Shown in pieces: positions 1-40,854 of a stretch of 64,000 nt of DNA. Under the pieces are notes generated by a model. That model was not told where the DNA came from, made no database searches, and worked only from the letters and a program-made list of their open reading frames with translations. Position numbers and translations under genes: made by a program. Where the stretch lies: assembly GCF_000346485.2 (NCBI RefSeq), contig NZ_KQ976354.1:4181436-4245435 (forward strand), read 5' to 3'. The stretch is from Scytonema hofmannii PCC 7110. Its GTDB lineage: Bacteria; Cyanobacteriota; Cyanobacteriia; Cyanobacteriales; Nostocaceae. The stretch's first letter is position 1. Every line of letters starts with the position of its first letter.

Positions 1-10
1 GAAATTGCCC

Positions 11-2209
11 ATGATTGTTGATTCTCACACTTACAAAACTCTTGGCGGTATAGGTGTATCTCGCTCCATCACTGAAGTGAAGTTGGACACAGCCTTGGAT
101 GAAATTTCCTTTTATTTGGACTCCCAGCGAGGAGGATTGCTTAAAAGCAGCTATGAATATCCAGGGCGATACAAAAGATGGGCGATTGGATTTGTAAATC
201 CACCACTAGAACTGACAACACGGGAGAGAGCTTTCAGCGTAAAAGCTCTAAACAATCGCGGCAAGGTGCTTCTACCCCTATTGTTGGTGCGTCTATCTGC
301 ACATTCCCAACTTCAAGAAGTCAAGCAAGACAGCGATTATATTACTGGATCTGTAAAGCCTGCCTTGCAATTGTTTGTAGAAGAAGAACGCAGTAAGCAA
401 CCTTCTGCGTTCACAGTGATTCGCGAAATTCTCCATGTTTTCTCTAGTCATGAAGACGAGCATCTAGGATTGTATGGGGCATTTGGCTATGATTTGTTAT
501 TTCAGTTTGAACCAATTCCAATGCGTCTGGAACGTCCCGCAGACCAACGGGATATAGTGCTTTATTTGCCCGATGAATTGGTTGTTGTTGACTACTATTT
601 GCAGCGTGCTTATCGAGTGCAGTATGAATTTGAAACAACAGAAGGCAATACCCAACATCTTCCACGTATAGGGGAATCAATTGACTACAGAGGTAAGCAC
701 CTTGTTCCAGCAAAAGCTTCCGACCATGCACCAGGAGAATATGCCAGTCAAGTAAAAGTAGCGCTAGATTATTTCCGGCGTGGAGATTTGTTTGAAGTGG
801 TTCCTTCGCAAAGCTTTTTTGAGTCCTGCGAACAACCACCCAGCCAACTTTTCCAAACCCTACAGCATATAAACCCCAGCCCTTATGGTTTTATCTTCAA
901 CCTTGGTGGAGAGTTTATCATTGGTGCTTCCCCAGAAATGTTTGTGCGGGTTGAAGGGCGGCGAGTAGAAACCTGCCCAATTAGTGGTACTATTACTCGG
1001 GGACAAGATGCCCTTGATGATGCCGAGCAAATTCGTCAACTCCTAAATTCAGGTAAGGAAGAAGCAGAGTTGACCATGTGTACTGACGTGGATCGCAATG
1101 ACAAATCCCGGATTTGCGAACCTGGATCCGTACAGGTGATCGGTCGCCGTCAAATAGAAATGTATAGTCACTTGATCCATACAGTGGATCATGTTGAGGG
1201 TTTGCTGCGATCGCAGTTTGATGCTTTGGACGCCTTTCTAACCCATACCTGGGCGGTGACAGTGACAGGCGCACCCAAGCGATCGGCAATGCAATTCCTC
1301 GAACAGCACGAACGCAGCGCCAGACGCTGGTATGGTGGAGCAGTGGGCTACCTCAACTTTAATGGTAACCTGAATACAGGATTAATTTTGAGAACCATTA
1401 GGCTTCAAGATTCAATTGCCGAGGTAAGAGTAGGAGCAACAGTTCTTTATGACTCTTTGCCATCAGCAGAAGAACAAGAGACAATGACAAAAGGTGCGGC
1501 ATTATTTGAAACAATTCGCCGTGCAAAGCAAGGAATCTCATCAAACAATTGCAAACGAGCAAAATTGAGCGCTTGTGTTCCAGATGTCGAACCCGGTAAG
1601 CGTATTTTACTTATCGATTACGAAGACTCATTTGTTCACACACTAGCCAACTACATTCGTCAAACTGGAGCAACAGTCACCACATTACGTCACGGCTTCT
1701 CAGAATCCCTCTTGGATATAGAGCGTCCGGACTTAGTTGTTTTATCTCCCGGTCCCGGTAAACCCAGTGATTTTAATGTACCAGACATGGTTCAAAGTTG
1801 CGTGCGCCGCAATATACCTCTGTTTGGAGTGTGTCTGGGACTACAAGGAATTGTTGAAGCCTTTGGAGGAGAACTCGGAGTTCTTCATTATCCCCAACAT
1901 GGTAAATCCTCAAGGGCGATCGTGACTGAACCAGATTCAGTTTTATTTAAAGGCTTACCCCAATCCTTTTCAGTAGGTAGATATCATTCTTTGTTTGCCT
2001 TACCACATCGGTTACCCGAACAATTGAAAGTAACAGCTATCTCAGATGATGAAACGATCATGGCAATTGAGCATCGATCGCTTCCTATAACTGCCGTGCA
2101 GTTTCATCCAGAATCTATTATGACTCTATCACAAGAAGTTGGTCTGGCAATCATCCAGAATGTAGTCCGTGCATATACTCAAATACAGAAGTTAGTGGTT
2201 AGTGGTTAG
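11..2209 (+). CDS. trpE/G: Anthranilate synthase, fused TrpE-TrpG
   Basis: This fused enzyme makes anthranilate from chorismate and glutamine, the first committed step of tryptophan synthesis. The N-terminal ~500 residues are the chorismate-binding TrpE part (motifs CPISGTITRG, DRNDKSRICEPGSV, TVTGAPKRSAM). A glutamine amidotransferase follows from about residue 530, with the Cys608 nucleophile in GVCLGLQ and the His699/Glu701 pair in QFHPES. The natural start is taken as ATG 11; a TTG six bases earlier is also in frame, and upstream sequence is outside the window. It is the first of six co-directional aromatic genes. The last codons (KLVVSG and TAG) lie inside a ttagtgg heptamer repeat. Fused TrpE/G is known in some bacteria, including cyanobacteria; the assignment is firm. 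Confidence 0.95.
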   Translation: MIVDSHTYKTLGGIGVSRSITEVKLDTALDEISFYLDSQRGGLLKSSYEYPGRYKRWAIGFVNPPLELTTRERAFSVKALNNRGKVLLPLLLVRLSAHSQLQEVKQDSDYITGSVKPALQLFVEEERSKQPSAFTVIREILHVFSSHEDEHLGLYGAFGYDLLFQFEPIPMRLERPADQRDIVLYLPDELVVVDYYLQRAYRVQYEFETTEGNTQHLPRIGESIDYRGKHLVPAKASDHAPGEYASQVKVALDYFRRGDLFEVVPSQSFFESCEQPPSQLFQTLQHINPSPYGFIFNLGGEFIIGASPEMFVRVEGRRVETCPISGTITRGQDALDDAEQIRQLLNSGKEEAELTMCTDVDRNDKSRICEPGSVQVIGRRQIEMYSHLIHTVDHVEGLLRSQFDALDAFLTHTWAVTVTGAPKRSAMQFLEQHERSARRWYGGAVGYLNFNGNLNTGLILRTIRLQDSIAEVRVGATVLYDSLPSAEEQETMTKGAALFETIRRAKQGISSNNCKRAKLSACVPDVEPGKRILLIDYEDSFVHTLANYIRQTGATVTTLRHGFSESLLDIERPDLVVLSPGPGKPSDFNVPDMVQSCVRRNIPLFGVCLGLQGIVEAFGGELGVLHYPQHGKSSRAIVTEPDSVLFKGLPQSFSVGRYHSLFALPHRLPEQLKVTAISDDETIMAIEHRSLPITAVQFHPESIMTLSQEVGLAIIQNVVRAYTQIQKLVVSG

Positions 2210-2262
2210 TAGTTTCTAATAACCAACAACTATTCACTATCCACTAACAACTATCAACTAAC
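2188..2262. repeat. Heptamer STRR between trpE/G and trpC
   Basis: Tandem and degenerate ttagtgg heptamers are followed by their inverted counterparts (ccactaacaac). The block spans the trpE/G stop codon and fills the 57-base gap to trpC. The inverted arrangement could fold into a hairpin. It belongs to the short tandemly repeated repetitive sequences known from heterocystous cyanobacteria. Confidence 0.75.
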
Positions 2263-2266
2263 ATTT

Positions 2267-3100
2267 ATGAATTATTCAGTTGGTGTTCGTCCGCGCCACA
2301 TTCTCGAAGAAATTGTGTGGTACAAAAGGCAAGAAGTTGCACAAATGCGTCAGGAATTGCCTTTAGTTTCTTTGCAACAACAATTAAGTACGGCTTCTAT
2401 AGTCAGAAATTTCTTGACGGCTTTGCGAGAAAACCCTTACCTACCTAGCGTGATTGCGGAGGTGAAAAAAGCATCTCCAAGCCGTGGCGTACTTCGTGCT
2501 GACTTCGATCCGGTAGCGATCGCACAAGCTTACGAACGAGGTGGAGCAGCTTGTTTGTCCGTTCTTACAGATTCCAAGTTCTTCCAGGGTAATTTTGATA
2601 ACTTGCGTAATATCAGGCAAAAAGTTGCACTGCCACTATTGTGTAAAGAGTTTATTATTGATATTTATCAAATTTATTATGCACGAGTGGCAGGTGCAGA
2701 TGCTGTATTATTGATAGCAGCCATTTTAACAGATGAAGAAATTCAGGATTTTGCGAGAGTTATCCATGACTTAGGAATGAAAGCTTTAGTAGAAGTTCAT
2801 ACCTTAGGTGAACTAGATAGAGTTCTAAAATTGGATAACATACGCTTAATAGGTATAAACAATCGCAATCTAGAAGATTTCACCCTCGATATTAAAACAA
2901 CCCAAAAACTGTCAGAGCAACGGCGATCGCAATTACAAAGCTATGGCATCACTCTTGTCAGTGAGTCTGGCTTATATACACCCGCCGATTTATCATTTGT
3001 AGCTGAAGTTGGTGCTCGTGCAGTACTCGTGGGAGAATCCTTAGTAAAACAAGCTGATATAGAGAAGGCTGTGCGAAGCCTGCTTAACAGTGACCAGTGA
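2267..3100 (+). CDS. trpC: Indole-3-glycerol phosphate synthase
   Basis: TrpC closes the ring of carboxyphenylaminodeoxyribulose phosphate to indole-3-glycerol phosphate. At 277 residues it has normal single-domain length. The TIM-barrel signatures are all present: the N-terminal HILEEIV helix, [10 protein letters not shown] with the catalytic Lys, CKEFIID, GINNRNL and SESGL. ATG 2267 lies just after the STRR block, with no strong Shine-Dalgarno, which suggests translation within the trp transcript. The final residues NSDQ and the TGA stop are read from a cagtgac repeat. Confidence 0.95.
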
Positions 3101-3143
3101 CCAGTAATCAGTGACCACTAACAACTAACAACTAACAAAATCA

Positions 3144-3962
3144 ATGGCTTCTATTTCCGAACGCTTTCAATCTTTAAGAAATCGCAATCAGTGTGCTTTA
3201 ATTCCTTTTGTGACAGCAGGAGATCCAGACCTGGAAACAACAAAAGAGGCTTTGCGCGTATTAGACAGGAATGGTGCTGACTTTATTGAATTGGGTGTTC
3301 CTTATTCCGATCCCCTTGCAGATGGTCCCGTTATTCAAGCGGCAGCGACTCGCGCTTTGTCTAAGGGAACTACACTAGAACAAGTGCTAGACTTAGTTGC
3401 AGAAGTTAGCCCTAGCCTGCAAGCACCTATTATTTTATTTACTTACTACAATCCTATTTTAAATTGGGGTATTAGGCCATTTTTAGCGCAAATTGCAAAT
3501 GTTGGAGCGCGGGGCTTAGTTGTTCCAGACTTACCTTTAGAAGAAGCAGAAGAGTTAATTAACACGGCTGCTGAATTTGGAATAGAAGTTATTTTGCTTG
3601 TGGCTCCTACAAGTTCCAAAGAAAGAATTAATGCGATCGCCCAATCTTCTAGAGGATTTATTTACCTTGTTAGTGTCACTGGTGTAACAGGTATACGTTC
3701 TCAAATTCAGGAGCGTGTAAAGCCGTTATTAGCGTCCATGCGAAGCGTAAGTGATAAGCCAATTGGCGTCGGCTTTGGTATTTCCGGCTCAGAACAAGCG
3801 CGTCAGGTTAAAGAATGGGGCGCAGACGCCGTGATTGTTGGTAGCGCTTTTGTGAAACGTTTAGCAACTGGTAATCCAGAAGAAGGACTCCAAGCAATTG
3901 AAGAACTTTGCAAAGAATTAAAAGCAGCGATAGCACCTGAATTGCTAATTGCTAATTGCTAA
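3144..3962 (+). CDS. trpA: Tryptophan synthase alpha subunit
   Basis: TrpA cleaves indole-3-glycerol phosphate to indole, which passes to TrpB through the alpha2-beta2 tunnel. The 272-residue TIM barrel shows [11 protein letters not shown], the catalytic Glu in [27 protein letters not shown] and GVTGIRS. It sits 43 bases after trpC and before trpB. Its C-terminal tail (LLIANC) and stop are read through an aattgct heptamer repeat, so the last few residues are probably not functionally constrained. Confidence 0.95.
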
Positions 3963-3978
3963 TTGCTCATTAGCCACT

Positions 3979-4007
3979 GTACGGGCGCAAGGCATTGCGC
4001 TCCCTAC
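3979..4007. repeat. Dispersed hairpin repeat (gcgcaaggcattgcgc family)
   Basis: A palindromic element with the core gcgcaaggcattgcgc flanked by gta-ggg/ccc-tac arms sits between trpA and trpB. Other copies lie at 6633-6660, 15690-15717, 16528-16555, 22562-22589 (inverted), 26613-26640 and 55593-55620. Here it is followed by the pentamer-like repeat actccct. It would form a stem-loop in the trp mRNA. Confidence 0.8.
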
Positions 4008-4033
4008 TCCCTACTCCCTACTCCCTAACAAAC

Positions 4034-5272
4034 ATGGTAAGCATCTCAGATAAAAACATTGCAGCCGCATCTGTAGTTCCTGACTCTTTGGGAAGATTTG
4101 GACGTTTTGGGGGTAAATATGTCCCTGAAACCTTAATGCCTGCTTTAAGTGAATTAGAAGCTGCAGCAGCACAATATCGCAATGACCCAACTTTTCAAGC
4201 AGAATTAAACGAATTACTGCGCGATTATGTGGGTCGCCCCAGTCCTTTATATTTTGCCGAACGTCTGACAGCAAAATATACTAGACCCGATGGAACCGGA
4301 CCACAAATTTACTTAAAGCGTGAAGATTTAAACCATACAGGTGCTCATAAAATTAATAATGCTTTGGGTCAGGTGTTGTTGGCAAAGCGTATGGGCAAGC
4401 AGCGCATTATCGCTGAAACTGGCGCAGGTCAGCACGGAGTTGCAACTGCTACTGTGTGTGCTCGTTTTGGTTTGCAGTGCGCGATCTACATGGGTATCCA
4501 TGATATGCAACGCCAATCCCTTAACGTTTTCCGGATGAAGCTGATGGGAGCAGAGGTGCGTCCCGTTGCAGCTGGGACTGGAACCCTCAAAGATGCAACT
4601 TCTGAAGCTATCCGAGACTGGGTAACAAATGTAGAAACAACTCATTACATTTTAGGTTCTGTTGCTGGTCCTCATCCCTATCCAATGCTAGTACGCGATT
4701 TTCACGCTATCATTGGTCAAGAGACTCGCGCTCAATGTTTGGAGAAATGGAGCGGTCTTCCAGATATCCTTTTGGCTTGTGTGGGTGGTGGTTCTAATGC
4801 CATTGGGTTGTTCACTGAGTTTGTGAATGAACCATCTGTCCGTATCATTGGAGTTGAGGCAGCAGGTGAAGGTGTTAACACGGAGAAGCATGCAGCTACT
4901 TTAACACGAGGTCGAATTGGTGTGTTGCATGGTGCGATGAGCTACGTGTTGCAAGATGGCGATGGTCAGGTTGTGGAAGCCCATTCCATTAGCGCTGGTT
5001 TGGATTATCCTGGTGTAGGTCCAGAACACAGCTATCTTAAGGATCTCGGTCGTGCTGAGTACTACAGCGTAAGTGATTCTGAAGCTTTAGCAGCGTTCCA
5101 GCGTTTGTCTCAGCTAGAAGGAATTATTCCAGCTTTGGAAACCTCTCATGCGATCGCGTATCTTGAAACACTCTGCCCGCAGCTAAGTGGTAGCCCCCGA
5201 ATAGTGATTAATTGTTCGGGTAGGGGAGACAAGGACGTACAAACAGTTGCTAAAGTCATCAATCCCGCTTGA
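4034..5272 (+). CDS. trpB: Tryptophan synthase beta subunit
   Basis: TrpB is the PLP enzyme that condenses indole with serine to give tryptophan. From ATG 4034 the protein has 412 residues, the usual TrpB1 length. An upstream in-frame TTG at 3995 would add 13 residues read through intergenic repeats, so ATG 4034 is preferred. The PLP lysine motif [10 protein letters not shown], the glycine-rich phosphate loop GGGSNAIG and the C-terminal SGRGDKD are present. Known scytonemin clusters often carry tyrP between trpA and trpB; only a 71-base gap exists here. Confidence 0.95.
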
Positions 5273-5472
5273 TACTTATTTTAGATTTTACATTTTGGAT
5301 TTTGGATTGAGAAATGATGTTGACCCTCTCCCAAAGGCAGAGGGAATGAGGAAATTAGCTCCCTTCTCCCTTTGGGAGAAGGGTTGGGGATGAGGGCAAT
5401 TCATTTTTAATCCAGAATTGAAAATTTAAAATTCTTCTTCGCGACTGCATTCATCAAAAACCAGAATAAATT
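5273..5472. repeat. trpB-trpD gap with strong hairpin
   Basis: The 200-base gap contains a perfect 10-bp stem (cccttctccc at 5361-5370 with gggagaaggg at 5374-5383) and a 3-base loop, inside a ccctctccc/gagggagaag-type repeat. It could slow or partly terminate transcription within the operon. No U tract follows, so a classical terminator is not supported. Confidence 0.6.
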
Positions 5473-6606
5473 ATGGTAGCCTCAACACAATTGGCAAGTG
5501 ACAACATCACCGTCACACCCGAATCTCTCGATTTACCTGCTTTGCTCAAGCAACTGCTCGATAGGCGATCGCTTTCAGTCGATCAAGCCAGAGCGCTTAT
5601 GGAAGGTTGGCTGACAGATGCTATTTCTCCAGTACTATCTGGGGCAATTTTGGCAGCGATTCAAGCCAAAGGAGTATCTACAGAAGAGTTGGTAGGTATG
5701 GCTGGTGTCCTGCAATCCCAATCTTCTTCCCCCATTGCCCCTTGTCCCCAGAGGGGGCCGCACCTTCCCCATTCACCACTCCCTACTCCCTTAGTAGACA
5801 CTTGCGGAACGGGAGGAGATGGAGCTTCAACCTTCAACATCTCCACAGCCGTCGCCTTTGTTGTTGCAGCAGCAGGGGTAAAAGTTGCAAAGCATGGTAA
5901 TCGTTCGGCGTCCAGCAAGACTGGTTCTGCTGATGTGTTAGAGGCTTTAGGTATAAATCTTAGCGCCGATCCTCAGAAAGTCAAGTCCGCAGTCGATGAA
6001 GTCGGCGTAACATTCTTGTTTGCTCCTGGGTGGCATCCAGCACTCAAAGCAGTTGCTGCTATGCGAAAAACATTAAAAGTGCGAACTGTTTTTAACTTGC
6101 TGGGTCCTTTGGTCAATCCCATGCGACCAACAGGGCAAATTATTGGTGTGTGTGACCCAATGCTAGTAGAAACAATTGCGAAAGCTTTGTCAGAACTAGG
6201 AACTCGTCGTGCAATTGTAGTGTACGGACGGGAAAGGTTAGATGAAGCTGGGCTAGCAGATTTAAATGACTTGGCTGTACTCAAAGATCGAAGTGTCATT
6301 CCATCTGTACTTAGTCCGGAAGAACTGGGTTTAACTCCTGCGCCAACGGAAGCATTACGAGGAGGAGAAGTCCAGGAAAACGCAGAAATTTTAAAAGCGG
6401 TGTTACAAGGAAAAGGAACACAACCACAGCAAGATGTTGTGGCATTAAACGCAGCCCTAGCACTTTATGTGGGTGAAGCAATTGATGATGGAGCAACGGA
6501 TATTGCCACCGCAGCTGTAAAAGGTATTGCCCTTGCCAAGGAAGTTCTGCAAAGTGGTGAAGCTTGGAAAAAACTAGAACAGCTTGCGGAATTTTTAAAT
6601 CAGTGA
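5473..6606 (+). CDS. trpD: Anthranilate phosphoribosyltransferase
   Basis: TrpD transfers phosphoribose from PRPP to anthranilate. The PRPP site [35 protein letters not shown] and the metal-binding region are intact in 377 residues. About 25 residues between MAGVLQSQ and [10 protein letters not shown] (roughly residues 83-107) are Pro/Ser-rich and look like translated intergenic repeat, including the string actccctactccc. The frame is kept, so the enzyme may tolerate a longer surface loop. The stop TGA is part of a downstream cagtgaccgg repeat. Confidence 0.93.
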
Positions 6607-6660
6607 CCGGTGACCGGTGACCAGTGACCAGTGTAAGGGCGCAAGGCATTGCGCCCCTAC
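6604..6660. repeat. STRR plus hairpin repeat after trpD
   Basis: A gtgaccg/gtgacca heptamer tract at 6604-6632 abuts the trpD stop. It is followed directly by a copy of the gcgcaaggcattgcgc hairpin element (6633-6660). Together they fill most of the 93-base gap before the DAHP synthase gene. Confidence 0.75.
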
Positions 6661-6699
6661 TAACCACTCACTACTATCAAATTTAGAGGATAAACAATC

Positions 6700-7788
6700 A
6701 TGATTGTAATTATTAAGAATAATACACCTGTTGATGAAATTACTCGTATTAGTCAAGAATTGAGTGAAAATTGGGGAGTTACTGTAGAAAAAAGTGTCGG
6801 TCAGCATAAAGTGGTTCTCGGAATGATTGGTGAAACTGCAACTCTTGACCCAATGGTTATTCAAAATAGCAGCCCTTGGATCGAGCAAGTTTTGCGTGTT
6901 GAGAAACCTTTTAAGCGGGCGAGCCGACAATTCCGTCACGGACAACCAAGCGAAGTTGTTGTACCTACACCCAATGGTTCTGTCTGCATTGGCGAGCAAC
7001 ATCCTATTGTATTGATTGCTGGACCTTGCTCTGTTGAAAATGAAGCCATGATTGTAGAAACAGCTAAGCGGGTGAAGGCTGCGGGAGCTAAGTTTCTGCG
7101 TGGTGGTGCTTTCAAGCCTCGTACTTCTCCTTATGCCTTTCAAGGACACGGTGAGAGTGCTCTAGAGTTATTAGCAGCTGCTCGTGAAGCGACAGGTTTG
7201 GGTATCATTACAGAAGTTATGGATGCTGCTGATTTGGCTGCGATCGTTCGTGTTGCTGATGTGGTACAAGTTGGCGCTCGAAATATGCAAAACTTTTCTC
7301 TATTAAAGAAAGTAGGTGCTCAAGATAAGCCTGTACTGCTCAAGCGAGGAATGTCTTGCACAATTGATGAGTGGCTCATGGCAGCAGAATATATTCTGGC
7401 TGGTGGAAATCCAAATGTGATTCTTTGCGAGCGTGGGATCAGAACTTTTGATTCTAAATATGTTCGCAACACCTTAGATTTGTCTGTCATTCCAGTATTG
7501 AGACAGCTTACACACTTACCAATCATGATCGATCCCAGTCATGGTACTGGTAAGTCTGAGTATGTTGGCTCAATGGCGTTAGCAGCTATAGCAGCAGGTA
7601 CAGATTCTTTAATGATTGAAGTTCACCCCAATCCTGCTAAAGCACTTTCTGATGGACCCCAATCCCTCACTCCCGAAAAGTTTGATTGCTTGGTTCAGGA
7701 ATTGTCAGTTATTGGCAAAGTCGTTGGTCGTTGGTCTAATGAACAGACTTTCAAACCTTCCCGAAAGGAAGTAGGTGTTATGGTGTAG
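6700..7788 (+). CDS. aroG: 3-deoxy-7-phosphoheptulonate synthase (DAHP synthase)
   Basis: This enzyme condenses phosphoenolpyruvate and erythrose-4-phosphate, the entry step of the shikimate pathway. The 362-residue protein has a ferredoxin-like N-terminal domain of about 70 residues (IVIIKNNTPVDEI) before the barrel, as in the Thermotoga/Bacillus-type enzyme. Barrel motifs include LIAGPCSVEN, LRGGAFKPRTSPYAFQG, KRGMSCT and MIDPSHGTG. An RBS-like gagga lies about 10 bases before ATG 6700. It closes the trp operon; pairing with a dedicated DAHP synthase suggests demand for extra aromatic flux. Confidence 0.93.
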   Translation: MIVIIKNNTPVDEITRISQELSENWGVTVEKSVGQHKVVLGMIGETATLDPMVIQNSSPWIEQVLRVEKPFKRASRQFRHGQPSEVVVPTPNGSVCIGEQHPIVLIAGPCSVENEAMIVETAKRVKAAGAKFLRGGAFKPRTSPYAFQGHGESALELLAAAREATGLGIITEVMDAADLAAIVRVADVVQVGARNMQNFSLLKKVGAQDKPVLLKRGMSCTIDEWLMAAEYILAGGNPNVILCERGIRTFDSKYVRNTLDLSVIPVLRQLTHLPIMIDPSHGTGKSEYVGSMALAAIAAGTDSLMIEVHPNPAKALSDGPQSLTPEKFDCLVQELSVIGKVVGRWSNEQTFKPSRKEVGVMV

Positions 7789-8428: not shown

Positions 8429-9502
8429 ATGGCAACTGAAAACACTTCTACCCAAAGTACTTCTAGTTCTGGGTTTTCACAATCTCCATTTGGTCGCTTG
8501 GGCGATGCTGTAGGCACTGAGAATTTACCAGGCTTTCCTGACGGTGGTGGTACTCAATCTGGCGGTGAGGGTGGCAACCAATTTGCTGGTGGTGGTGCGC
8601 CAGTGTCACCTTTCGATCAAATCAGATATAACATTGACCAGGCAATTTATAGCGCATTTCCTCCTGGTGGTACTCCTGATACCAACACCAGCATTAACAC
8701 TAGCACGTTAAACCCTTTCAATCAACCGTCAGGTGGTAGCAACCAGTCTGGTGGTGGAGAAGGCTCATCCTTTGGCGGTTTCAATCCGTTTGATCCTAGC
8801 TTTGGTAGCAACGTGAGCAACCAAGCTATCCAGGCTAGCAGTGGATCTGGTGGTGGTAGCACTGGCGGCTTTGGTGGTGGTGATAGTAACCAAACTGGTA
8901 GTCCTTTCGCGTCCAATCCACAAGCAAATCAAATAGATGCAACTCGTACCGATTTAAGTAACTTTGTTACTGCACAAGTCAACGGCGGTAACACTAACTT
9001 AATTGCAGAGCAAATAAGCTCTATAGTTAGCGGATTGGTTACTTCTTTAACGGGTAATACACCATCTTCAACTGTTGTACAAGAATCAGTACTAGTTGCT
9101 GAAGTTGTTACTCCTGCTGAAGAAAACATCGTCATTCCAACAGATGAAGTCGCAGCAGTAAATAACATCACAAACCAAACAGATATCTTCAACAGCAGCA
9201 TTGAAAATTCTTCTGTTGCAACCTTCAACGAATCTATTGCTGGTAGTAGTGTGACTTCTGGTTACCCAACTCAAGAAGAGTTCCTTGCAATCCTTAATGG
9301 TGGAGATTTAAATCTTCCTGACTATTTGTCTGATGACGCAAAAGCATATATCCAAGGTCGGGTTTCAACAATTAGCGGGAATATCGGACAGTACCAAGAA
9401 GCAGGTAGTTTATTTGCTGGTGGTAATCTATCTACTGATGGAAGTAATCCATTTAGTGGATCTGGTGCTCCATTTGGTGGTGGTAGTAACCCATTTGTCT
9501 AA
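8429..9502 (+). CDS. Gly/Ser/Asn-rich protein with NPF motifs (trio member A)
   Basis: No known family is recognised. ATG 8429 has a good ribosome site (aggag, 8413-8417) and gives 357 residues. The N-terminus ATENTSTQSTSSSG is not a Sec signal. Glycine/serine-rich tracts alternate with motifs such as NPFNQ, NPFDP, NPFSG and a terminal SNPFV. A central helical, less repetitive segment (LSNFVTAQVNGG through AEVVTPAEENIVIPTDE) separates them. No Cys is seen. Composition and motifs match the gene at 11113, so they are probably paralogues. A secreted or surface role, perhaps by type I export, is inference only. Confidence 0.75.
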   Translation: MATENTSTQSTSSSGFSQSPFGRLGDAVGTENLPGFPDGGGTQSGGEGGNQFAGGGAPVSPFDQIRYNIDQAIYSAFPPGGTPDTNTSINTSTLNPFNQPSGGSNQSGGGEGSSFGGFNPFDPSFGSNVSNQAIQASSGSGGGSTGGFGGGDSNQTGSPFASNPQANQIDATRTDLSNFVTAQVNGGNTNLIAEQISSIVSGLVTSLTGNTPSSTVVQESVLVAEVVTPAEENIVIPTDEVAAVNNITNQTDIFNSSIENSSVATFNESIAGSSVTSGYPTQEEFLAILNGGDLNLPDYLSDDAKAYIQGRVSTISGNIGQYQEAGSLFAGGNLSTDGSNPFSGSGAPFGGGSNPFV

Positions 9503-9521
9503 AGTTATAAATTGATACAAA

Positions 9522-9559
9522 AATGTTGGGTTCAATCATTTACTGAAGAACCCAACATT
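9522..9559 (+). terminator. Stem-loop after trio gene A
   Basis: A perfect 12-bp stem (aatgttgggttc at 9522-9533 and gaacccaacatt at 9548-9559) with a 14-base loop lies 20 bases past the stop. The run attattct follows. It is a plausible terminator, or an mRNA 3' stabiliser given the weak U tract. Confidence 0.55.
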
Positions 9560-9675
9560 ATTCTACAAGCTACTAGCCGTTATAAAGAATTGAAGAAGAA
9601 AGTCATAAACCTAGCTTGCATTATTCTCTCTAGTTCAGAAAAATTTTTGTTCTAACAATAGGAGGATTTTTGTTT

Positions 9676-10206
9676 ATGACAACGGCTTCAAATGTTAATA
9701 CCAACGCTAGTAGCAATAGCGTGTTCCCTCAATTATCCGGTGATGTTTTAAACCGCATTCAAAAAAACCTCTCAACCTTCACTGACATTGTTAATCGCTA
9801 TAAAAGCGGTAATCCAGTGACAAACGGTGACTTAGCAGTATTATCACCTGTGGTTGAGTTTGTCAACTATTTAAATAGTACTGGTCGATTACCTACTGGT
9901 AGCAATACAGTTGCTGGTAGTAGTAATGTGCCTGGTACTACCAGCCCAGTGACAACTAGTGGCAGTGTGGTTCCCTTGCAATCTCCTAATGATGTTTTGA
10001 AGTTGATAGAAGCTGATATCACAAGCTTTTACAATACTGTCAACCGGAATTCTGGTATTGGTGGTAACAATCAGCTTCCACAATCTGCCGCTGATGTCTT
10101 CAAACTCTTGCAGAATGACATCATCGCATACAGTAACAACATCAATAAACTTCAATCTACTAACAGCCCATTAGTTGGTGGTAGCAATACCAATACGATT
10201 CTCTAA
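9676..10206 (+). CDS. Ser/Asn/Thr-rich protein (trio member B)
   Basis: This 176-residue protein has no recognised family. It starts at ATG 9676 behind an unusually strong site (aggagg, 9660-9665). It has no signal peptide and no Cys. Two repeated helical units are visible: SGDVLNRIQKNLSTFTDIVNR near the N-terminus and two PNDVLKLIEADITSFYNTVNR-like units in the second half. The same unit (PSDLLTLFKNDILSANTSIN) appears in the 11113 protein, linking the two genes. Gly/Thr/Ser linkers such as GTTSPVTTSGS connect the units. Function unknown; shared repeats and position suggest joint function with its neighbours. Confidence 0.75.
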   Translation: MTTASNVNTNASSNSVFPQLSGDVLNRIQKNLSTFTDIVNRYKSGNPVTNGDLAVLSPVVEFVNYLNSTGRLPTGSNTVAGSSNVPGTTSPVTTSGSVVPLQSPNDVLKLIEADITSFYNTVNRNSGIGGNNQLPQSAADVFKLLQNDIIAYSNNINKLQSTNSPLVGGSNTNTIL

Positions 10207-11112
10207 GAGAACTCAATTAGTCTCAAAGTTTACTAGCTCATGATTTAACACCCACTCCAGAAACAAAAGAAGAAAGTTGCTTTTTTAGGTTTGTTTTTAG
10301 ACGTTACACAACAGTTATTCTGTTTGCGTCTGAGGCAAACCTATTTTCTTTCATAAAAACGGCCAAGTTTACCCAAAAAAATTCTTGTGTTTTGTATTGT
10401 TTTCTCTCCTATATGACTCCTGTTTGATTTTTGAAATATACGTAGGTAGGGCTAAAGCCCACCACATAAAGCTTGTGTGCGGCAAAGCCCTACCTACTAA
10501 AAAAATCTTATGTTTTGTATTTTTTTCTTTCCTAATTTATTTATATTTAAATAAAAAAAACAGAAAAATATCTAAAAAATAGACAAGCTTATCGAAAAAT
10601 AACTTATTGCTGTTTGTCTTGCAATTGCTTAGATTCTTAATTAACTAGTGTTGATTACAATCCTAAAAAAACAGTCACAATGTGCGTTAGTGGTAGCATC
10701 TATCTTCACTATTATTTCCCTTGGGTGAATAATTTTATGCTAAAGACCTACTGTTCTCTAAGAAAACTAACAAAAGGTATAGCTTTAGTCTTCTAATTGT
10801 TAGTGATGGTAGCTTGTGTTTTCTGTCTTGTAACTCTTACACAGGCAGTAAATCTATCAACGCAATGAAGAGCGATCGCTTCGGCGCAAGCCGTACTCGG
10901 CTTATCGCACTCAAACAGTTCAAATTCTTAGTTGAAATAAGAAATGCTGGGTTAAACCCATTGACGGATCACCCAACAAGCTTTCAAGAGCTATTAGCCA
11001 ATAATGCCTGCCCTCAAAAAACTGTCAAGTGCTAATTGATAAGCAGGATCGACTTTTCTATCTTTTATATTCTACGGGATTTTGGTTCCACAAATTAGGA
11101 GGATTGTTATTC
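10207..11112. other. Intergenic region with palindromic element
   Basis: About 900 bases lie between trio genes B and C. They include a copy of the taggactcc-family palindrome (10409-10500), an A+T-rich stretch to about 10640 and one HIP1 site near 10872. Two short frames (10385-10582 and 10814-11035) have no RBS or recognisable sequence and are not called. The length suggests a separate promoter for gene C. Confidence 0.4.
10409..10500. repeat. Palindromic element, 'taggactcc' family, copy 2
   Basis: The left arm is atgactcctgtttgattttt followed by gaaatatacgtagg, the same flank as at 7945. The centre is gtagggctaaagccca with an imperfect right arm (gcaaagccctacctac). The right outer flank is degenerate. 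Confidence 0.6.
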
Positions 11113-12828
11113 ATGGCGACTTCTACTACTGATATTCTCACACCTAGCGACCCCTTGGCTGGGAGCGTAACTTATGGCTCCTCTGCAAGCACTTCTAGCG
11201 GTTCACTCCCCAACACTTTTGGTGATAGTGCTAACTTATATAGTGGCAGTACTTGGAGTTCCAGTACTAGCAATAATTCTTTTGCTGGTGCTGAAAATAA
11301 CCCATATGCAGGTGGTGGCGGCTACGCTTATGCAAGTCTTGGCAACACGGTTGTTGGTGACAATCAATGGATTATCGGTAAAGAAACCACACCGGAGAGA
11401 TTTTCAAAAGTGATAAATTATACTACAGAGGAAGTGATAGACTCAGCGATCGTCAAGCTGACCAACAGACTTTCTGAGAGTGGCATTACAACTTCTTCCA
11501 CCGATGGAAACCCATTTGCGGGTGGAAACAATCCTTTTGGCAGTACTAATGCTCCAGCTCTCGATTTTTTAAGACAGGTATATGGTGTAAACTTCCCCAT
11601 ACCTGAATCAGCATCGGAGTTCTTAACATCAGTATACGGACAAACCTTACCTGGTGGTTCCAGTAACCCATTTCCCAGTACTGGTACTGAGACTTCAGGT
11701 ACTGGTGGTGGCAATCCGTTTGCTGGTGCTGGAACTTCAAGTGCTGGTGGTAGCAATCCGTTTGCGGGTGCTGGTAGTTCAGGTGCTGGTGTTAGCATAC
11801 CTCAACAGCCATCTTTTGATATCACACAAGTTATCTTTGGTGAAAGCTTACCGTCTGGAGGTAGTGGCAAATCTTCCTCTGAGACACTCAGAGTTGTCCA
11901 AGATGGTTTGTTAAACTTCACGAAAACCGTCAATTCTGCTGTTGGTCAAAGACTTTTTAGTGGTAACAACACACCTCTGAAATCACCTTCAGATTTGTTG
12001 ACGCTTTTTAAGAATGACATACTCAGCGCCAATACCAGTATCAACACTGTTAATGACCTTGCTGGTGGTGGCGAAGATCCCTATAACAACCTGACTGGAG
12101 GTAGTGGTTCTCAGGCTGTTCAGCCATCTTCCGATATTTTGTACACCGTTCTTGGTGGTTTGTTGCCTTTCAGTGGTACTGACAACATTTTCAATACTCC
12201 TGATGGTAGTATACCTGTTGGTTACGGCAATAAGGACTTTGGAAGTGACAGCGCAGTTATCGGTAATTCCAACTGGAATTATGGGCAATCCAATGCAAGC
12301 ATCGGTAATGCTAACTGGAATTGGGATTACACCAAAGATAACGCAACTATTGGTAATGGTAACTGGTATTTAGACTCCAGCCAGAACAACAGAACTTTAG
12401 GTAATGGTAACTGGTACTGGGAGTCAACGGCTGAGAACAATACCTTGGGTAACGGTAACTGGCACTTTGGAAATAACAATACCACCATTGGTAACGGTAA
12501 CTGGGACTTCGGTAGCAACAACACAATCATTGGTAATGGCAATAGGGTCTTTACCAGCAACAGCATTGTAATTGGTAACGGTAACTGGTCTGTTATTATT
12601 GACAAATCTTCCACTGCTGCAGGCGACTTCCTGGGCAAGTTGGACAATTTAGTAATGTCAATGGGAATTAAGGACAGTGCTGATAATCTGGTGAATTCCC
12701 TGATTGGCAAATTCGGTGGTGCTTTTGAACCACTGACAGGTGAGTTAACTGAAGGCGGTCGTAAGACTTACAATCAGCTTTTCTACTCCGATAATAGCAG
12801 TGCGATCGCAGCTGCACCTAGCCCATAG
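11113..12828 (+). CDS. Gly-rich protein with NPFAGG and IGNGNW repeats (trio member C)
   Basis: From ATG 11113, behind taggagg (11095-11101), the protein has 571 residues. It has no signal peptide and no Cys. The N-terminal ~380 residues mix Gly/Ser linkers carrying NPF/NPYAGG motifs (NPYAGGGG, NPFAGGNNPFG, NPFAGAGTS, NPFAGAGSS) with helical units such as PSDLLTLFKNDILSAN. Residues ~383-492 contain eight hexapeptide copies of [IL]GN[GSA]N[WR] spaced 10-17 residues apart, separated by Asn-rich turns. This pattern resembles a beta-solenoid or a YadA-head-like roll, by inference. A hydrophobic helical tail follows. Family unknown. The repeats also create long antisense frames that are not genes. 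Confidence 0.8.
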   Translation: MATSTTDILTPSDPLAGSVTYGSSASTSSGSLPNTFGDSANLYSGSTWSSSTSNNSFAGAENNPYAGGGGYAYASLGNTVVGDNQWIIGKETTPERFSKVINYTTEEVIDSAIVKLTNRLSESGITTSSTDGNPFAGGNNPFGSTNAPALDFLRQVYGVNFPIPESASEFLTSVYGQTLPGGSSNPFPSTGTETSGTGGGNPFAGAGTSSAGGSNPFAGAGSSGAGVSIPQQPSFDITQVIFGESLPSGGSGKSSSETLRVVQDGLLNFTKTVNSAVGQRLFSGNNTPLKSPSDLLTLFKNDILSANTSINTVNDLAGGGEDPYNNLTGGSGSQAVQPSSDILYTVLGGLLPFSGTDNIFNTPDGSIPVGYGNKDFGSDSAVIGNSNWNYGQSNASIGNANWNWDYTKDNATIGNGNWYLDSSQNNRTLGNGNWYWESTAENNTLGNGNWHFGNNNTTIGNGNWDFGSNNTIIGNGNRVFTSNSIVIGNGNWSVIIDKSSTAAGDFLGKLDNLVMSMGIKDSADNLVNSLIGKFGGAFEPLTGELTEGGRKTYNQLFYSDNSSAIAAAPSP

Positions 12829-13709: not shown

Positions 13710-14687
13710 ATGACCTCTGAAAGAAAAAGAGCTGATAATGATTCACCATGGAAAGAAATTTTAGAAGCCTACTTTCCGCAAGCAATGCAATTTTTCTTCC
13801 CGCAAACAGCCGCATTAATTGACTGGACGCGCCCTTACGAATTTTTAGACAAGGAATTTCAGCAAATTGCACGCGACGCCGAAGTTGGTAGACGATATGC
13901 AGATAAGTTGGTGAAAGTCTGGCAACTGCAAGGAGAGGAAATGTGGTTGTTGATACACGTAGAAGTTCAAGCTAGCCCGGAAGACGACTTTGCACAAAGA
14001 ATGTTTTCCTACAACTTGCGGATCTTCGACCGCTTTGGCAAACCTGCCATCAGTTTAGCCATTTTGTGCGATGCCGACCCCGAATGGCGACCGAATCGGT
14101 ATAGTTTTCGCTACCCTAACACCAGGCTGAAATTTGAATTTGGTATTGTCAAGCTACTCGATTACCAAAACCGTTGGGCAGAGTTAGAAGCGAGTGACAA
14201 TCCATTTGCCACAGTGGTGATGGCACACTTAAAAATGCAACAAACAACGAAAAAGCCCCAGGAAAGGAAAAGTTGGAAATTTAGCTTGATAAGACGGTTG
14301 TATGACTTGGGATGGCAAGAGAAAGAGATTCGGAACCTATATCGATTTATCGATTGGATTATGATATTACCAGATGGATTAGAAGCAGAGTTTTGGCAGG
14401 AATTTAAGCAATTTGAGCAGGAGCGTCGGATGAGTTACATTACTACAGGTGAGCGCATTGGCTACGAGCGCGGAAAGAGCGAAGGCAAGATCGAAGGAGA
14501 GCTTGAAGGCGAACAAAAGCTTGTTCTACGGCTACTGAGAAGACGAGTAGGAGAATTACCACAAGCACTCATCGAAAGCATTCAAACCCTCTCAGTTACA
14601 CAATTAGAATCACTAGGCGAAGCTTTGTTAGATTTTACAGCCATGGAAGACTTGCTCGACTGGTTAGACGCCAATCGCACAGTCTAA
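13710..14687 (+). CDS. Rpn/DUF4351-type putative nuclease
   Basis: This 325-residue protein matches the cyanobacterial Rpn-like group, often annotated as cytosolic protein or transposase with a C-terminal DUF4351 domain. The core has a PD-(D/E)XK-like arrangement (DKLVKVW, then WLLIHVEVQAS with the E-x-Q signature). A linker YERGKSEGKIEGELEGE is followed by the C-terminal LLRRRVGELPQALIESIQTLS and WLDANRTV. Members are implicated in recombination or DNA cleavage; the role here is unknown. Two fragments of the same gene lie downstream, so the locus has undergone duplication. Confidence 0.8.
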   Translation: MTSERKRADNDSPWKEILEAYFPQAMQFFFPQTAALIDWTRPYEFLDKEFQQIARDAEVGRRYADKLVKVWQLQGEEMWLLIHVEVQASPEDDFAQRMFSYNLRIFDRFGKPAISLAILCDADPEWRPNRYSFRYPNTRLKFEFGIVKLLDYQNRWAELEASDNPFATVVMAHLKMQQTTKKPQERKSWKFSLIRRLYDLGWQEKEIRNLYRFIDWIMILPDGLEAEFWQEFKQFEQERRMSYITTGERIGYERGKSEGKIEGELEGEQKLVLRLLRRRVGELPQALIESIQTLSVTQLESLGEALLDFTAMEDLLDWLDANRTV

Positions 14688-15235
14688 GGTAAGTTGTTGG
14701 GAAGCTCTACTGAAGCTAGGCTCCCAAGACTCAATAGCTAACAATCCAAGTCGATGTTTTTTCAAGCTTTCGGATTGATAACATTATGATATTACCAAAT
14801 AGGTTAGAAGCAGAGTTTTGGCAGGAATTTAAGCAATTTGAGCAGGAGCGTCGGATGAGTTACATGACTACAGGTGAGCGTATTGGCTACGAGCGCGGAA
14901 AGAGCGAAGGCAAGATCGAAGGCAAGATCGAAGGCAAGATCGAAGGAGAGCTTGAAGGCGAACAAAAGCTTGTTCTACGGCTACTGAGAAGACGAGTAGG
15001 AGAGTTACCACAAGCACTCATCGAAAGCGTTCAAACCCTCTCAGTTACACAATTAGAATCACTAGGCGAAGCTTTGTTAGATTTTACAGCCATGGAAGAC
15101 TTGCTCGACTGGTTAGACGCCAATCGCACAGCATAAGGTAAGTTGTTGGGAAGTTCTACTGAAGCTAGACTCCCAAGACTCAATAGCTCTACAATCCAAG
15201 TTGATGTTTTTTCCAAGCTTTCGGATTGATAACAT
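14361..15235 (+). repeat. Tandem duplication of the Rpn gene 3' end
   Basis: Unit 1 (14361-14785, 425 bases) covers the last third of the Rpn gene plus its 3' flank. Unit 2 (14786-about 15235) repeats it at high identity, including the downstream string ggtaagttgttgggaag. Unit 2 is about 25 bases longer because it has two extra copies of a 12-base GKIE-coding repeat. A direct tandem duplication is the simplest explanation. Confidence 0.85.
14786..15136 (+). pseudogene. Duplicated C-terminal fragment of Rpn/DUF4351 gene
   Basis: The frame encodes 116 residues nearly identical to residues 218-325 of the protein at 13710, beginning MILPNRLEAEFW. It keeps the DUF4351 tail but lacks the whole nuclease core. 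The linker has expanded to GKIEGKIEGKIEGELEGE. It arose from the tandem duplication, and no ribosome site is seen. Confidence 0.8.
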
Positions 15236-15326
15236 CACTGCCGTAAGGCGGATACGGCTTGCTCTTCGCCATTAGCTAAGTCCGGCTGACGCTTCGCTAT
15301 CAGTTCTCAATGAAACATCCTTTGAT

Positions 15327-15581
15327 TTGCATCGTCTTTTGGTTGATTTAAAAGATACGATCAGTTTAGCTATTTTGTGCGATGCCGACCCCGAATGGCG
15401 ACCAAATCGGTATAGTTTTCGCTACCCTAACACCAGGCTGAAATTTGAATTTGGTATTGTCAAGCTTCTGGATTACCAAAACCGTTGGGCAGAGTTAGAA
15501 GCGAGTGACAATCCATTTGCCACAGTGGTGATGGCACATTTAAAAATGCAACAGACAACGAAAAAGCCTCAAGAAAACTGA
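15327..15581 (+). pseudogene. Internal fragment of Rpn/DUF4351 gene
   Basis: Bases ~15358-15572 match ~14050-14265 of the Rpn gene (LAILCDADPEWRPNRYSF through QQTTKKPQE) with few changes, then stop. The fragment lies after the C-terminal copy, so segment order is inverted relative to the parent gene. This implies a deletion inside a once longer duplication. Confidence 0.8.
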
Positions 15582-34866: not shown

Positions 34867-35123
34867 GGTTAAATCTCCTAAAAATAGGGAATGGGGAATG
34901 GGGAATAGGAATTTAGGTTAAAAAAGTAACAAACTTAGAAGTTAAAACTTAAAAAGTCCTTTTAACTTCTAATTGTCTTTTCCCCACTCCCTACTCCCTA
35001 CTCACCACTCCCTACAATTGTTCTTCTCTTTGATTTACATACATCTGTCTTCAGTGGGGTTAAACATCAAATTCAACTTTGATAGCTTGGAGCGTGAAAG
35101 TTTTTTTGCAATCGGAGTGGATT

Positions 35124-35615
35124 ATGACATTTACTCAAACTAACGATCCTAATGTTCGAGAACACGTTCAAGCTTTTCAAAGTTTACCTGTAGATGAACA
35201 ATTGGCTTTGTTCTGGTTTCTTTATAAAGAAATGGGCAAGTCTATAACTCCAGCAGCTCCTGGAGCAAGCACAGTGTCTGATAGTGTTGCTGAAGGTTTA
35301 TTCAATCAAATTAAAGAACTACCATCAGAAGAACAACTACAGTTTCAGCGCGATTTGATTAATAACACAGATAATCAGTACAGTCGTATGTATGGTTCCA
35401 TGAGCGATACTACGAAGTTACTATTTTGGTATCGCCTAGCTCAAGGTATGGATAATGCGACTATTATTTCTATGCCTCCTGGTTACAAGCTTTCTTCACA
35501 ATCTCAAGAATTGCTCAATAAACTTAAGCAAGTTGAATTTGAGCAGCAAATGAATATTTTCCGCGATTACGTCTCTCCAATGGGGACTGAACCAAAGGCG
35601 GGTGCTGAAGTTTAG
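35124..35615 (+). CDS. hcp: Helical carotenoid protein (OCP N-terminal domain homologue)
   Basis: From ATG 35124 (ggag at 35114) the 163-residue protein is a stand-alone OCP N-terminal domain. Conserved carotenoid-contact positions are visible in LALFWFLYKEMGKS (Trp and Tyr) and LLFWYRLAQGM (Trp). HCPs bind carotenoid and quench singlet oxygen or phycobilisome excitation. No C-terminal-domain homologue is nearby. Which HCP clade it belongs to cannot be settled by eye. Its place beside the stress genes fits photoprotection. Confidence 0.92.
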   Translation: MTFTQTNDPNVREHVQAFQSLPVDEQLALFWFLYKEMGKSITPAAPGASTVSDSVAEGLFNQIKELPSEEQLQFQRDLINNTDNQYSRMYGSMSDTTKLLFWYRLAQGMDNATIISMPPGYKLSSQSQELLNKLKQVEFEQQMNIFRDYVSPMGTEPKAGAEV

Positions 35616-40147: not shown

Positions 40148-40789
40148 ATGACAAAACAGGATAATCCTGAAAATGCAAAACCTAGCGGCGTCTCTCGTCG
40201 CGGATTTTTCAAAAGGGCAAGTGTCACCGTAGCTAGCGCAGCTATTTTAGATTCTGGTTTGATTGGTACCAAAGAAGCAGCAGCAGCACCTTCCAACTTT
40301 GTTGGTCCAAGACGAACACCGATTAAACTCCGTATTAATGGAGCTGAGCGTCGTATGGAACTCGAACCCCGCACTACCCTTGCTGAGGCTTTGCGCTTCG
40401 AGTTAGGTTTGACAGGCACGAAAATTGTTTGCGATCGCGGTTCTTGTTCCGCTTGTACAGTTTGGTTGGATTCAACACCTGTGTGCTCGTGTATGATGCT
40501 GGCAATGGATGTGGGCGATCGCGCCATCACCACCATCGAAGGACTCGCCAAAGGAGAAGATTTGCATCCAGTACAGGCTGCATTCATTGAATACGATGCC
40601 CAGCAATGCGGTTATTGTACGCCAGGGATGGTGATGAGTTGCGCGGCTCTCCTGGCAAAGAATTCAAACCCCACACTTGAAGATATACAAGCAGCTACAA
40701 GCGGTAATTTGTGTCGTTGCGGTACTTATCCCAAAGTGTTTGAAGCAACCCTCGCGGCGGCCAAGTCCATTCAAAGTGCGAGGAGTTAA
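40148..40789 (+). CDS. Molybdenum hydroxylase, 2Fe-2S subunit (PaoA-like)
   Basis: The 213-residue protein has a Tat signal (SRRGFFKRASV, residues 17-27). A plant-type ferredoxin domain follows with CDRGSCSACTVW, and then the helical domain with CGYCTPGMVMSC and NLCRCGTYPK. These hold the two [2Fe-2S] clusters of the xanthine oxidase family. As in E. coli PaoA, Tat export suggests a periplasmic aldehyde-oxidoreductase-type complex. It is the first of three genes; a gtcactg repeat lies in the 65-base gap to the next. Confidence 0.92.
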   Translation: MTKQDNPENAKPSGVSRRGFFKRASVTVASAAILDSGLIGTKEAAAAPSNFVGPRRTPIKLRINGAERRMELEPRTTLAEALRFELGLTGTKIVCDRGSCSACTVWLDSTPVCSCMMLAMDVGDRAITTIEGLAKGEDLHPVQAAFIEYDAQQCGYCTPGMVMSCAALLAKNSNPTLEDIQAATSGNLCRCGTYPKVFEATLAAAKSIQSARS

Positions 40790-40854
40790 AGGTATGGTAT
40801 CACTGGTCACTGGTTACTGGTCACTGTTCACTGTTCAAAAAAGGAGTTAAAGCT

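What the first reader, a model, noticed from the sequence alone, without database searches (positions are those of the whole stretch)
8429..12828. Three-gene Gly/Ser/Asn-rich protein system with NPF motifs
Three adjacent genes, each with a strong ribosome site, encode Cys-free proteins without Sec signals. Genes A and C share NPF-[AGS]-G motifs. Genes B and C share a helical unit of the form S-D-[VL]-[LF]-x-L-x-[KE]-[ND]-I. No known family is recognised. Together they look like structural, possibly exported, matrix or filament proteins next to an aromatic/sunscreen supply operon.
Basis: partly seen in the sequence, partly recalled or inferred. Interest (0 to 1): 0.75.

Follow-up and report, generated by a model that had tools for sequence, protein, structure and literature searches.

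The report
Unrecognised structural proteins of scytonemin cluster
Next to the genes for the cyanobacterial sunscreen pigment scytonemin sit genes for unusual repetitive, probably structural proteins that turn up almost only in cyanobacteria carrying the pigment genes, so they are probably an overlooked part of how the pigment is released, held or deposited outside the cell.

Summary
The three genes are real. Gene C is the key: nine coils of a 14-16 residue repeat (xNxTIGNGNWxFG), confidently modelled as a beta-solenoid plus helical tail, with no meaningful Pfam, NCBIfam or PHROGs match. Intact C occurs in 25 of 100 relatives: 25 of 28 ScyC-positive and 0 of 72 ScyC-negative. Order-wide the repeat protein is in 35 of 48 ScyC-positive and 2 of 330 ScyC-negative genomes, the two being a truncated relic and a 65%-complete assembly. 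C, usually with a Gly/NPF-rich partner (A), sits at four or more positions in scytonemin clusters, sometimes fused to A. B is a Scytonema/Brasilonema/Tolypothrix extra related to C's helical units. Some relatives carry PEP-CTERM-type tails, yet none of 25 C proteins has a signal-like N-terminus. Best reading: dedicated scaffold or matrix proteins for scytonemin deposition. Cluster membership is strongly supported; mechanism is inferred. Eight searches of an open-licence library found no description.

The parts
5..7788 (+). Tail of the scytonemin cluster: trpE, trpC, trpA, trpB, trpD, aroG (scyA-F, ebo genes, tyrA, aroB lie upstream of the window)
   Evidence: ORFs; AroG = DAHP synthase in Pfam; upstream ORFs in L078, one of them hitting NCBIfam ScyE_fam NF033206 at 308 bits; the other names by reading the translations and by gene order as in PMC2726228
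8413..8417 (+). Ribosome site of A (aggag)
   Evidence: sequence
8429..9502 (+). Gene A, 357 aa, Gly/Ser/Asn-rich, N-terminal QSPFGRL motif, 4 NPF
   Evidence: A-like ORF beside C in many other genomes
9660..9665 (+). Ribosome site of B (aggagg)
   Evidence: sequence
9676..10206 (+). Gene B, 176 aa, repeated helical units; found in Scytonema/Brasilonema/Tolypothrix only
   Evidence: AlphaFold helices at low confidence
11097..11102 (+). Ribosome site of C (aggagg)
   Evidence: sequence
11113..12828 (+). Gene C, 571 aa, IGNGNW solenoid protein
11509..11763 (+). NPF-rich stretch of C
11869..12048 (+). Helical units of C similar to B
12214..12588 (+). Nine 14-16 residue coils (xNxTIGNGNWxFG), predicted beta-solenoid with one Trp in most coils
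12619..12798 (+). C-terminal helical domain of C

Best explanation
A and C are dedicated, previously unrecognised components of the scytonemin system: non-enzymatic scaffold or matrix proteins. C is a rigid beta-solenoid rod with a Trp/aromatic ladder and a helical tail. A is a flexible, Phe-studded, Gly-rich partner. Inferred mechanism: after ScyABC make the monomer and Ebo/ScyE export and dimerise it (published), A/C act beyond the cytoplasmic membrane as the platform that binds the flat, insoluble pigment, or tethers it to sheath polysaccharide, so that it accumulates in the sheath. SHOWN: the genes, the fold prediction, co-occurrence and cluster linkage, A-C fusions, PEP-CTERM-type tails in several relatives. 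INFERRED: location, pigment or polysaccharide binding, role in deposition. B is a lineage-specific accessory sharing C's helical units. The first part (belonging to the scytonemin system) I hold at about 0.9; the number given is for the whole statement.
For: (1) Same 100 relatives: intact C in 25 of 28 ScyC+ and 0 of 72 ScyC-; order-wide the A2 profile is in 35 of 48 ScyC+ and 2 of 330 ScyC-. Fisher p 1.4e-20 and 3.8e-36, not corrected for shared ancestry. (2) C lies beside scytonemin-cluster genes in 16 of 25 relatives (8 with none in the fetched flanks, 1 on a contig end), and at four or more positions overall: after aroG; between scyF and ebo; between scyF and trpE; between trpE and scyA. 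(3) The 8 genomes with C away from the cluster (in G007, G035, G059 more than 1 Mb from ScyC on the same contig) are still all ScyC+. (4) Natural loss, one case: in G337, colinear with two ScyC+ members of its genus, C is cut to its C-terminal ~130-173 aa and no ScyC is found. (5) A-C fusion proteins (L055, L189, L164, L165, L177, L178, L181). (6) Tails: both partners in L185 pass NCBI's TIGR02595 cut-off. Exosortase CrtB is essential for scytonemin in N. punctiforme (PMC12188702). (7) Solenoid modelled at pLDDT 93-97 over residues 31-140 of the 224-residue model.
Against: No signal-like N-terminus on any of 25 C proteins, so even the tailed forms lack the usual entry to the Sec route, and the window's C lacks the tail too. 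The same L185 tails miss Pfam's PEP-CTERM cut-off (19.7 and 17.5 vs 20.7). Genomes with scyA-F-type clusters but without C: G379 and G401 (no hit), G365 and G002 (weak hits only), so C is not universally required. No expression, localisation or binding data. Which way the Trp side chains face could not be read from the model; residue statistics are ambiguous. Many unrelated left-handed beta-helix enzymes also align to the model at Z about 10, so fold says little about function.
Confidence: 0.5

Rival explanations
1. A/C are a periplasmic or outer-membrane-crossing carrier (chaperone) for the insoluble monomer or dimer, or a docking partner of ScyE, rather than a sheath matrix protein.
For: Gene order scyF-A-C-eboA in L185, L186, L188 (and scyF-C-eboA in L187, with a short A-type ORF between) places them between the dimerisation and export genes; the outer-membrane step of scytonemin is described as undefined (PMC12188702).
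Against: Large low-complexity regions of widely varying length (C 341-759 aa) fit a matrix better than a stoichiometric chaperone; no transporter-like domain recognised.
Confidence: 0.22
2. A/C are cytoplasmic or membrane-tethered scaffolds that gather the biosynthetic enzymes (a condensate-like assembly), not exported.
For: No signal-like N-terminus; sticker-and-spacer NPF/Gly composition; strong ribosome sites.
Against: PEP-CTERM tails over the NCBIfam cut-off in both partners in L185, and VPE[PSAF]-helix-basic tails by eye in 13 of the 25 aligned C proteins; positive charge after the tail helix predicts the main domain outside (general rule, recalled).
Confidence: 0.15
3. General sheath or polysaccharide structural proteins useful in exposed habitats; the link with scytonemin is ecological and by gene neighbourhood only.
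For: 8 of 25 relatives have no cluster gene in the fetched flanks of C; YadA-like adhesin heads and an ice-binding protein share the fold class; in the D-paralog regions fetched, no scy or ebo gene was seen, though these were only compared with window proteins.
Against: Near absence from ScyC-negative genomes, the cut-down copy in G337, several different positions inside the cluster.
Confidence: 0.1

Closest known systems
ScyD/ScyE/ScyF and the scytonemin cluster of Nostoc punctiforme (PMC2726228, PMC4870267, PMC12188702)
   Same: Same cluster and genomes; PEP-CTERM-type tail in many C and some A relatives, as in ScyD-F.
   Different: No recognised enzyme or propeller domain and no signal-like N-terminus; [quoted passage not shown]
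Lolium perenne ice-binding protein (3ULT), 14-15 residue beta-roll
   Same: Best structural match: Z 15.8, rmsd 1.1 over 111 residues, 32% identity; Asn/Gly-rich coils.
   Different: Sequence match insignificant (E 8.4; 5.3 with the profile); C has Trp plus another aromatic or hydrophobic residue per coil, a helical tail and an NPF region.
YadA-like heads of trimeric autotransporter adhesins (AtaA 3wp8, UspA1 3ntn, YadA 1p9h)
   Same: Short-coil beta-roll, Z 11-13.5; extracellular structural role (recalled).
   Different: No Hep_Hag hit for A, B, C or the relatives scanned; no signal-like N-terminus.
PEP-CTERM/exosortase substrates
   Same: C-terminal VPEP-helix-basic tail in relatives, over the NCBIfam cut-off in L185.
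   Different: No N-terminal signal; window's C lacks the tail.

Membership tests
Scytonemin gene cluster component | Occurs only with scy core genes | tested here: met
   25/28 vs 0/72 and 35/48 vs 2/330; exceptions G337 (truncated) and G295 (65% complete; its C lies beside ebo genes)
Scytonemin gene cluster component | Physically inside or beside the cluster | tested here: met
   16 of 25 relatives (8 with no cluster gene in the fetched flanks, 1 contig end) and several other families
Scytonemin gene cluster component | UVA co-induction and scytonemin phenotype of mutants | not testable with these tools
   no expression or mutant data
PEP-CTERM / exosortase substrate | C-terminal PEP-CTERM tail | tested here: not met
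   Window C has no tail. In relatives mixed: L185 C and A pass the NCBIfam TIGR02595 cut-off (17.0 and 16.6 vs 16), L054 just misses (15.1); all three miss Pfam's cut-off
PEP-CTERM / exosortase substrate | N-terminal Sec signal peptide | tested here: not met
   0 of 25 C proteins with a hydrophobic N-terminus comparable to ScyD-F (hydropathy scan)
PEP-CTERM / exosortase substrate | Exosortase system in the genome | tested here: met
   CrtB-associated family TIGR04533 at 302 bits, cut-off 65, in G000; the exosortase itself was not searched for
YadA-like trimeric autotransporter adhesin | Hep_Hag repeats and C-terminal membrane anchor | tested here: not met
   No Pfam hit for the window proteins at E 10
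YadA-like trimeric autotransporter adhesin | Short-coil beta-roll fold | tested here: inconclusive
   Z 11-13.5 to several heads, but no Foldseek match at E <= 0.001
Ice-binding protein (3ULT type) | Same fold and significant sequence similarity | tested here: inconclusive
   Fold Z 15.8, sequence E 8.4 and 5.3
Type I secretion substrate (RTX kind) | RTX repeats recognised by Pfam | tested here: not met
   No Pfam hit at E 10; other type I substrates without RTX repeats are not excluded

The most novel reading that the evidence does not exclude
C is a pigment-organising solenoid: stacked Trp/aromatic ladders at the regular rung spacing of a beta-roll bind or template the flat scytonemin molecule and, with the Gly/NPF-rich partner, form a protein-pigment sheath material exported by a route that needs no signal peptide. 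This would be a dedicated bacterial pigment-matrix protein and a missing factor in rebuilding scytonemin production in other hosts.
Probability: 0.27. Interest if true: 0.88.

Novelty: new variant of a known kind. Interest (0 to 1): 0.7.

Why it matters
Scytonemin is a widespread and ancient UVA sunscreen. How it crosses the outer membrane and associates with extracellular polysaccharide is described as undefined, and production in other hosts has yielded only monomers (PMC12188702). A protein pair that tracks the pathway across many genera, yet is not mentioned in the cluster descriptions I could read, gives a directly testable candidate for that gap. The PEP-CTERM-type tail without a signal peptide is a second, separate puzzle about export.

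Tried and rejected
Family searches of A, B, C in Pfam and NCBIfam at E 10 and PHROGs at E 0.1: nothing meaningful. Sequence search of solved structures: no significant relative. Foldseek on the C model: no match at E <= 0.001; the VIA second look gave the beta-roll relatives, but also phage phi29 gp12 (Z 13.0) and many left-handed beta-helix enzymes at Z about 10; families not listed there are not excluded. AlphaFold of B from 6 sequences: low confidence (pLDDT 41.8), helices at the repeated units. I tried to decide whether the Trp ladder faces in or out from residue statistics and the 3ULT register: not decidable. Plasmid collection: no match to the C-terminal 204 residues of C. Phylum-wide sample: 11 of 386, all from the window's own order. 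The idea that B belongs to the conserved core was rejected: true B in 5 of 100 relatives. Promoter and terminator scan around the genes: not informative against shuffles.

Rows dropped or limited: of the 29 of 100 hits, four were not counted as C: G046 (D-type paralog) and G024, G029, G093 (short or with stops, E 2e-5 to 4e-4). In one search only 8 candidates per genome were scored, so misses are possible; I rechecked 17 genomes with a second query: 10 hit, and G028, G290, G296, G310, G363, G379, G401 did not. Of the 13 ScyC+ genomes without an A2 hit, four (G190, G199, G228, G286) carry a C-like ORF in the cluster; I did not add them to the 35 because ScyC- genomes were not inspected the same way. 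G290, G296 and G363 end on short contigs, so their clusters are only partly in view. Among the 35 A2+ ScyC+ genomes, the hits of G046 and G312 are the D paralog (G312 also keeps a 113-aa-frame C fragment). My greedy ORF caller listed no C ORF in L182 (G341) although the profile hits there. The model alignment A3 used 68 of 79 candidate slices; 11 with other coil numbers or layout were left out.
Full report
OBSERVATION. The window holds three consecutive + strand ORFs, A (8429-9502, 357 aa), B (9676-10206, 176 aa) and C (11113-12828, 571 aa), each 10-11 nt behind an AGGAG/AGGAGG site. None has Cys or a hydrophobic N-terminus. NPF sites: four in A, five in C. The helical unit shared by B and C is true similarity, since B as query hits C ORFs of other genomes at 4.8e-9 (G013) and 3.7e-4 (G012). 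No Pfam or NCBIfam family applies even at E 10; PHROGs gives only two unnamed hits at 0.02-0.08.

SURROUNDINGS. Upstream in the window lie trpE, trpC, trpA, trpB, trpD and aroG (AroG = DAHP synthase in Pfam). The adjoining stretch (L078) carries scyA, scyB, scyC, three ORFs with signal-like N-termini and PEP-CTERM-type tails (scyD, scyE, scyF), ebo genes, a glycosyltransferase, tyrA and aroB. The ScyE identification is NCBIfam NF033206 at 308 bits; the other names rest on reading the translations and on gene order as in PMC2726228. So the window starts inside a scytonemin cluster and A-B-C follow its last gene.

WHAT C IS. C has nine coils of a 14-16 residue repeat, consensus xNxTIGNGNWxFG, followed by a helical tail; many Gly, Asn and Trp positions are invariant or nearly so in 25 homologues and in 68. 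AlphaFold on the 68-row alignment (224 residues) gives mean pLDDT 84, and 93-97 over residues 31-140: a beta-solenoid, then helices. The closest solved fold is the ryegrass ice-binding protein 3ULT (Z 15.8, rmsd 1.1 over 111 residues), then YadA-type adhesin heads (Z 11-13.5) and phage phi29 gp12 (Z 13.0); many left-handed beta-helix enzymes follow at Z about 10. Foldseek has no match at E <= 0.001 and sequence similarity to solved structures is not significant. This is a fold analogy, not membership. Over 612 coil instances Trp occupies its position in 468 (76%), and the residue two further on is hydrophobic in 96% of 578. Whether these side chains face outward could not be decided.

DISTRIBUTION. 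In 100 relatives intact C occurs in 25 (29 hits at E <= 1e-3 before dropping G046, a paralog, and G024, G029, G093, short or with stops). ScyC occurs in 28 of the same 100, including all 25; the three ScyC+ genomes without C are G002, G028 and G046. In 378 genomes of the order, the profile of the repeat and tail is in 37 and ScyC in 48; 35 overlap. The two exceptions are G337, a truncated copy, and G295, a 65%-complete assembly whose C lies beside ebo genes. Fisher tests give 1.4e-20 and 3.8e-36 without correction for shared ancestry. In 386 genomes of the phylum only 11 hit, all from the window's order. Named carriers include Scytonema, Brasilonema, Tolypothrix, Calothrix, Rivularia, Nostoc, Aliterella, Chroococcus, Chlorogloea and Trichocoleus.

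GENE NEIGHBOURHOOD. Of the 25 relatives, 16 have C beside scytonemin-cluster genes (in G022 and G047 only aroG is in view), 8 have no cluster gene in the fetched flanks and 1 is on a contig end. In three of the eight (G007, G035, G059) ScyC is on the same contig more than 1 Mb away. Across families C sits after aroG, between scyF and the ebo genes (L185-L188), between scyF and trpE (L055, L189), or between trpE and scyA (L162-L165, L177, L178, L181), with further layouts in L183 and L184. Of 78 named loci, 38 contain two or more cluster genes within the fetched flanks. Of 115 C-like ORFs with a same-strand upstream neighbour within 1.5 kb, that neighbour is Gly/Ser/Asn-rich in 86 (B counted among them), with an SPF-type N-terminal motif in 58 and an NPFAGDNFW-type motif in 42 (one genome can be counted more than once). 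In some genomes the A-type and C-type segments are one protein (L055, L189, L164, L165, L177, L178, L181). True B is in 5 of 100 relatives and, among the named loci, in Scytonema, Brasilonema and Tolypothrix.

A NATURAL LOSS. G337 has the same gene order as its ScyC+ congeners G040 and G343, with most neighbouring genes at about 80-97% identity, but retains only the C-terminal ~130-173 residues of C. It has no ScyC hit, and its only ScyA hit (63% identity, two stops in the aligned span) resembles the ScyA paralogs that other genomes also carry. This is what decay after loss of the pathway would look like; it is one case.

AGAINST. G379 and G401 have scyA-F and no C hit at all; G365 and G002 have only weak hits. 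G028 and G310 have only a scyA-scyC pair in view, with a divergent ScyC, and may not be scytonemin producers. C is therefore not strictly required wherever scy genes occur. I have no expression or localisation data.

EXPORT. By eye, 13 of the 25 aligned C proteins end in a VPE[PSAF]-helix-basic tail, and A-type proteins of L185-L188 do too. In L185 both partners pass NCBI's TIGR02595 cut-off and L054 just misses it; all three miss Pfam's PEP-CTERM cut-off. None of the 25 C proteins has an N-terminal hydrophobic segment like ScyD-F (highest 1.29, at most 0.69 in the 13 tailed forms, against 1.8-2.3). The genome encodes the CrtB-associated exosortase partner. In N. punctiforme CrtB is essential for scytonemin, and the outer-membrane step is called undefined (PMC12188702, parts 1-5 of 6 read). 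How a signal-less protein with such a tail would be exported is unexplained.

LITERATURE. PMC2726228 (parts 1 and 2 of 5 read, passages elsewhere) says the response regulator was the only other conserved cluster gene in its four genomes. The passages I saw of PMC6282210, PMC4870267, PMC6529634, PMC9796282 and PMC3858816 mention no such proteins. Searches listed no paper whose title or abstract start describes them. The library holds open-licence papers only; supplements were not read and the 2009 AEM cluster paper was not available.

CONCLUSION. That A and C belong to the scytonemin system: about 0.9. That they act as an extracytoplasmic scaffold or matrix for the pigment: about 0.5. The Trp-ladder pigment-binding idea: about 0.27.

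Noticed in passing
L062:9549-10757, L066:9196-10530, L067-L070, L072, L075: A second family of Cys-free GNGNW-repeat proteins (starts such as MSxNSIQGNGNWYYTDGQW or TGNGNFSFTDGKW) outside the scy cluster in the regions fetched. Extended, clearly better-than-C hits in 12 of 100 relatives (G006, 11, 12, 17, 25, 40, 44, 46, 50, 52, 58, 59), all ScyC-positive.
   Followed up: partly
L162:10534-13722, L163:11120-14827, L164:10583-13963, L165:10576-13905: Giant (1062-1235 aa) Cys-free ScyD-like proteins stand where separate scyD/E/F are found in other clusters.
   Followed up: no
L157, L168; second ScyC of G052 (G052:C2:121342-122283): scyA-scyC pairs without the rest of the cluster in view (L157, L168) and divergent ScyC copies (58-63% identity): possibly a different scytonemin-like pathway.
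   Followed up: no
window 7852, 7980, 8012, 10447: Intergenic TAGGGCTAAAGCCCA elements, 6 in the window with up to 2 mismatches against 0.09 expected; these four lie upstream of A or between B and C.
   Followed up: partly
window 13710-15581: Three successive full or partial copies of one gene; the first two end in a DUF4351 domain.
   Followed up: no
window 35115-35612: Orange carotenoid protein N-terminal domain protein, another photoprotection gene in the window; an ORF that looks like psbA (by eye) is at 62276-63358.
   Followed up: no
window 40148-44399: Three-gene molybdenum hydroxylase (aldehyde/xanthine dehydrogenase type) with a twin-arginine-like N-terminus on its iron-sulphur subunit by eye (the third gene was not scanned).
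   Followed up: no
L098, L097: Two A-C pairs in Plectonema cf. radiosum LEGE 06105 and two C copies in Rivularia sp. MS3.
   Followed up: no
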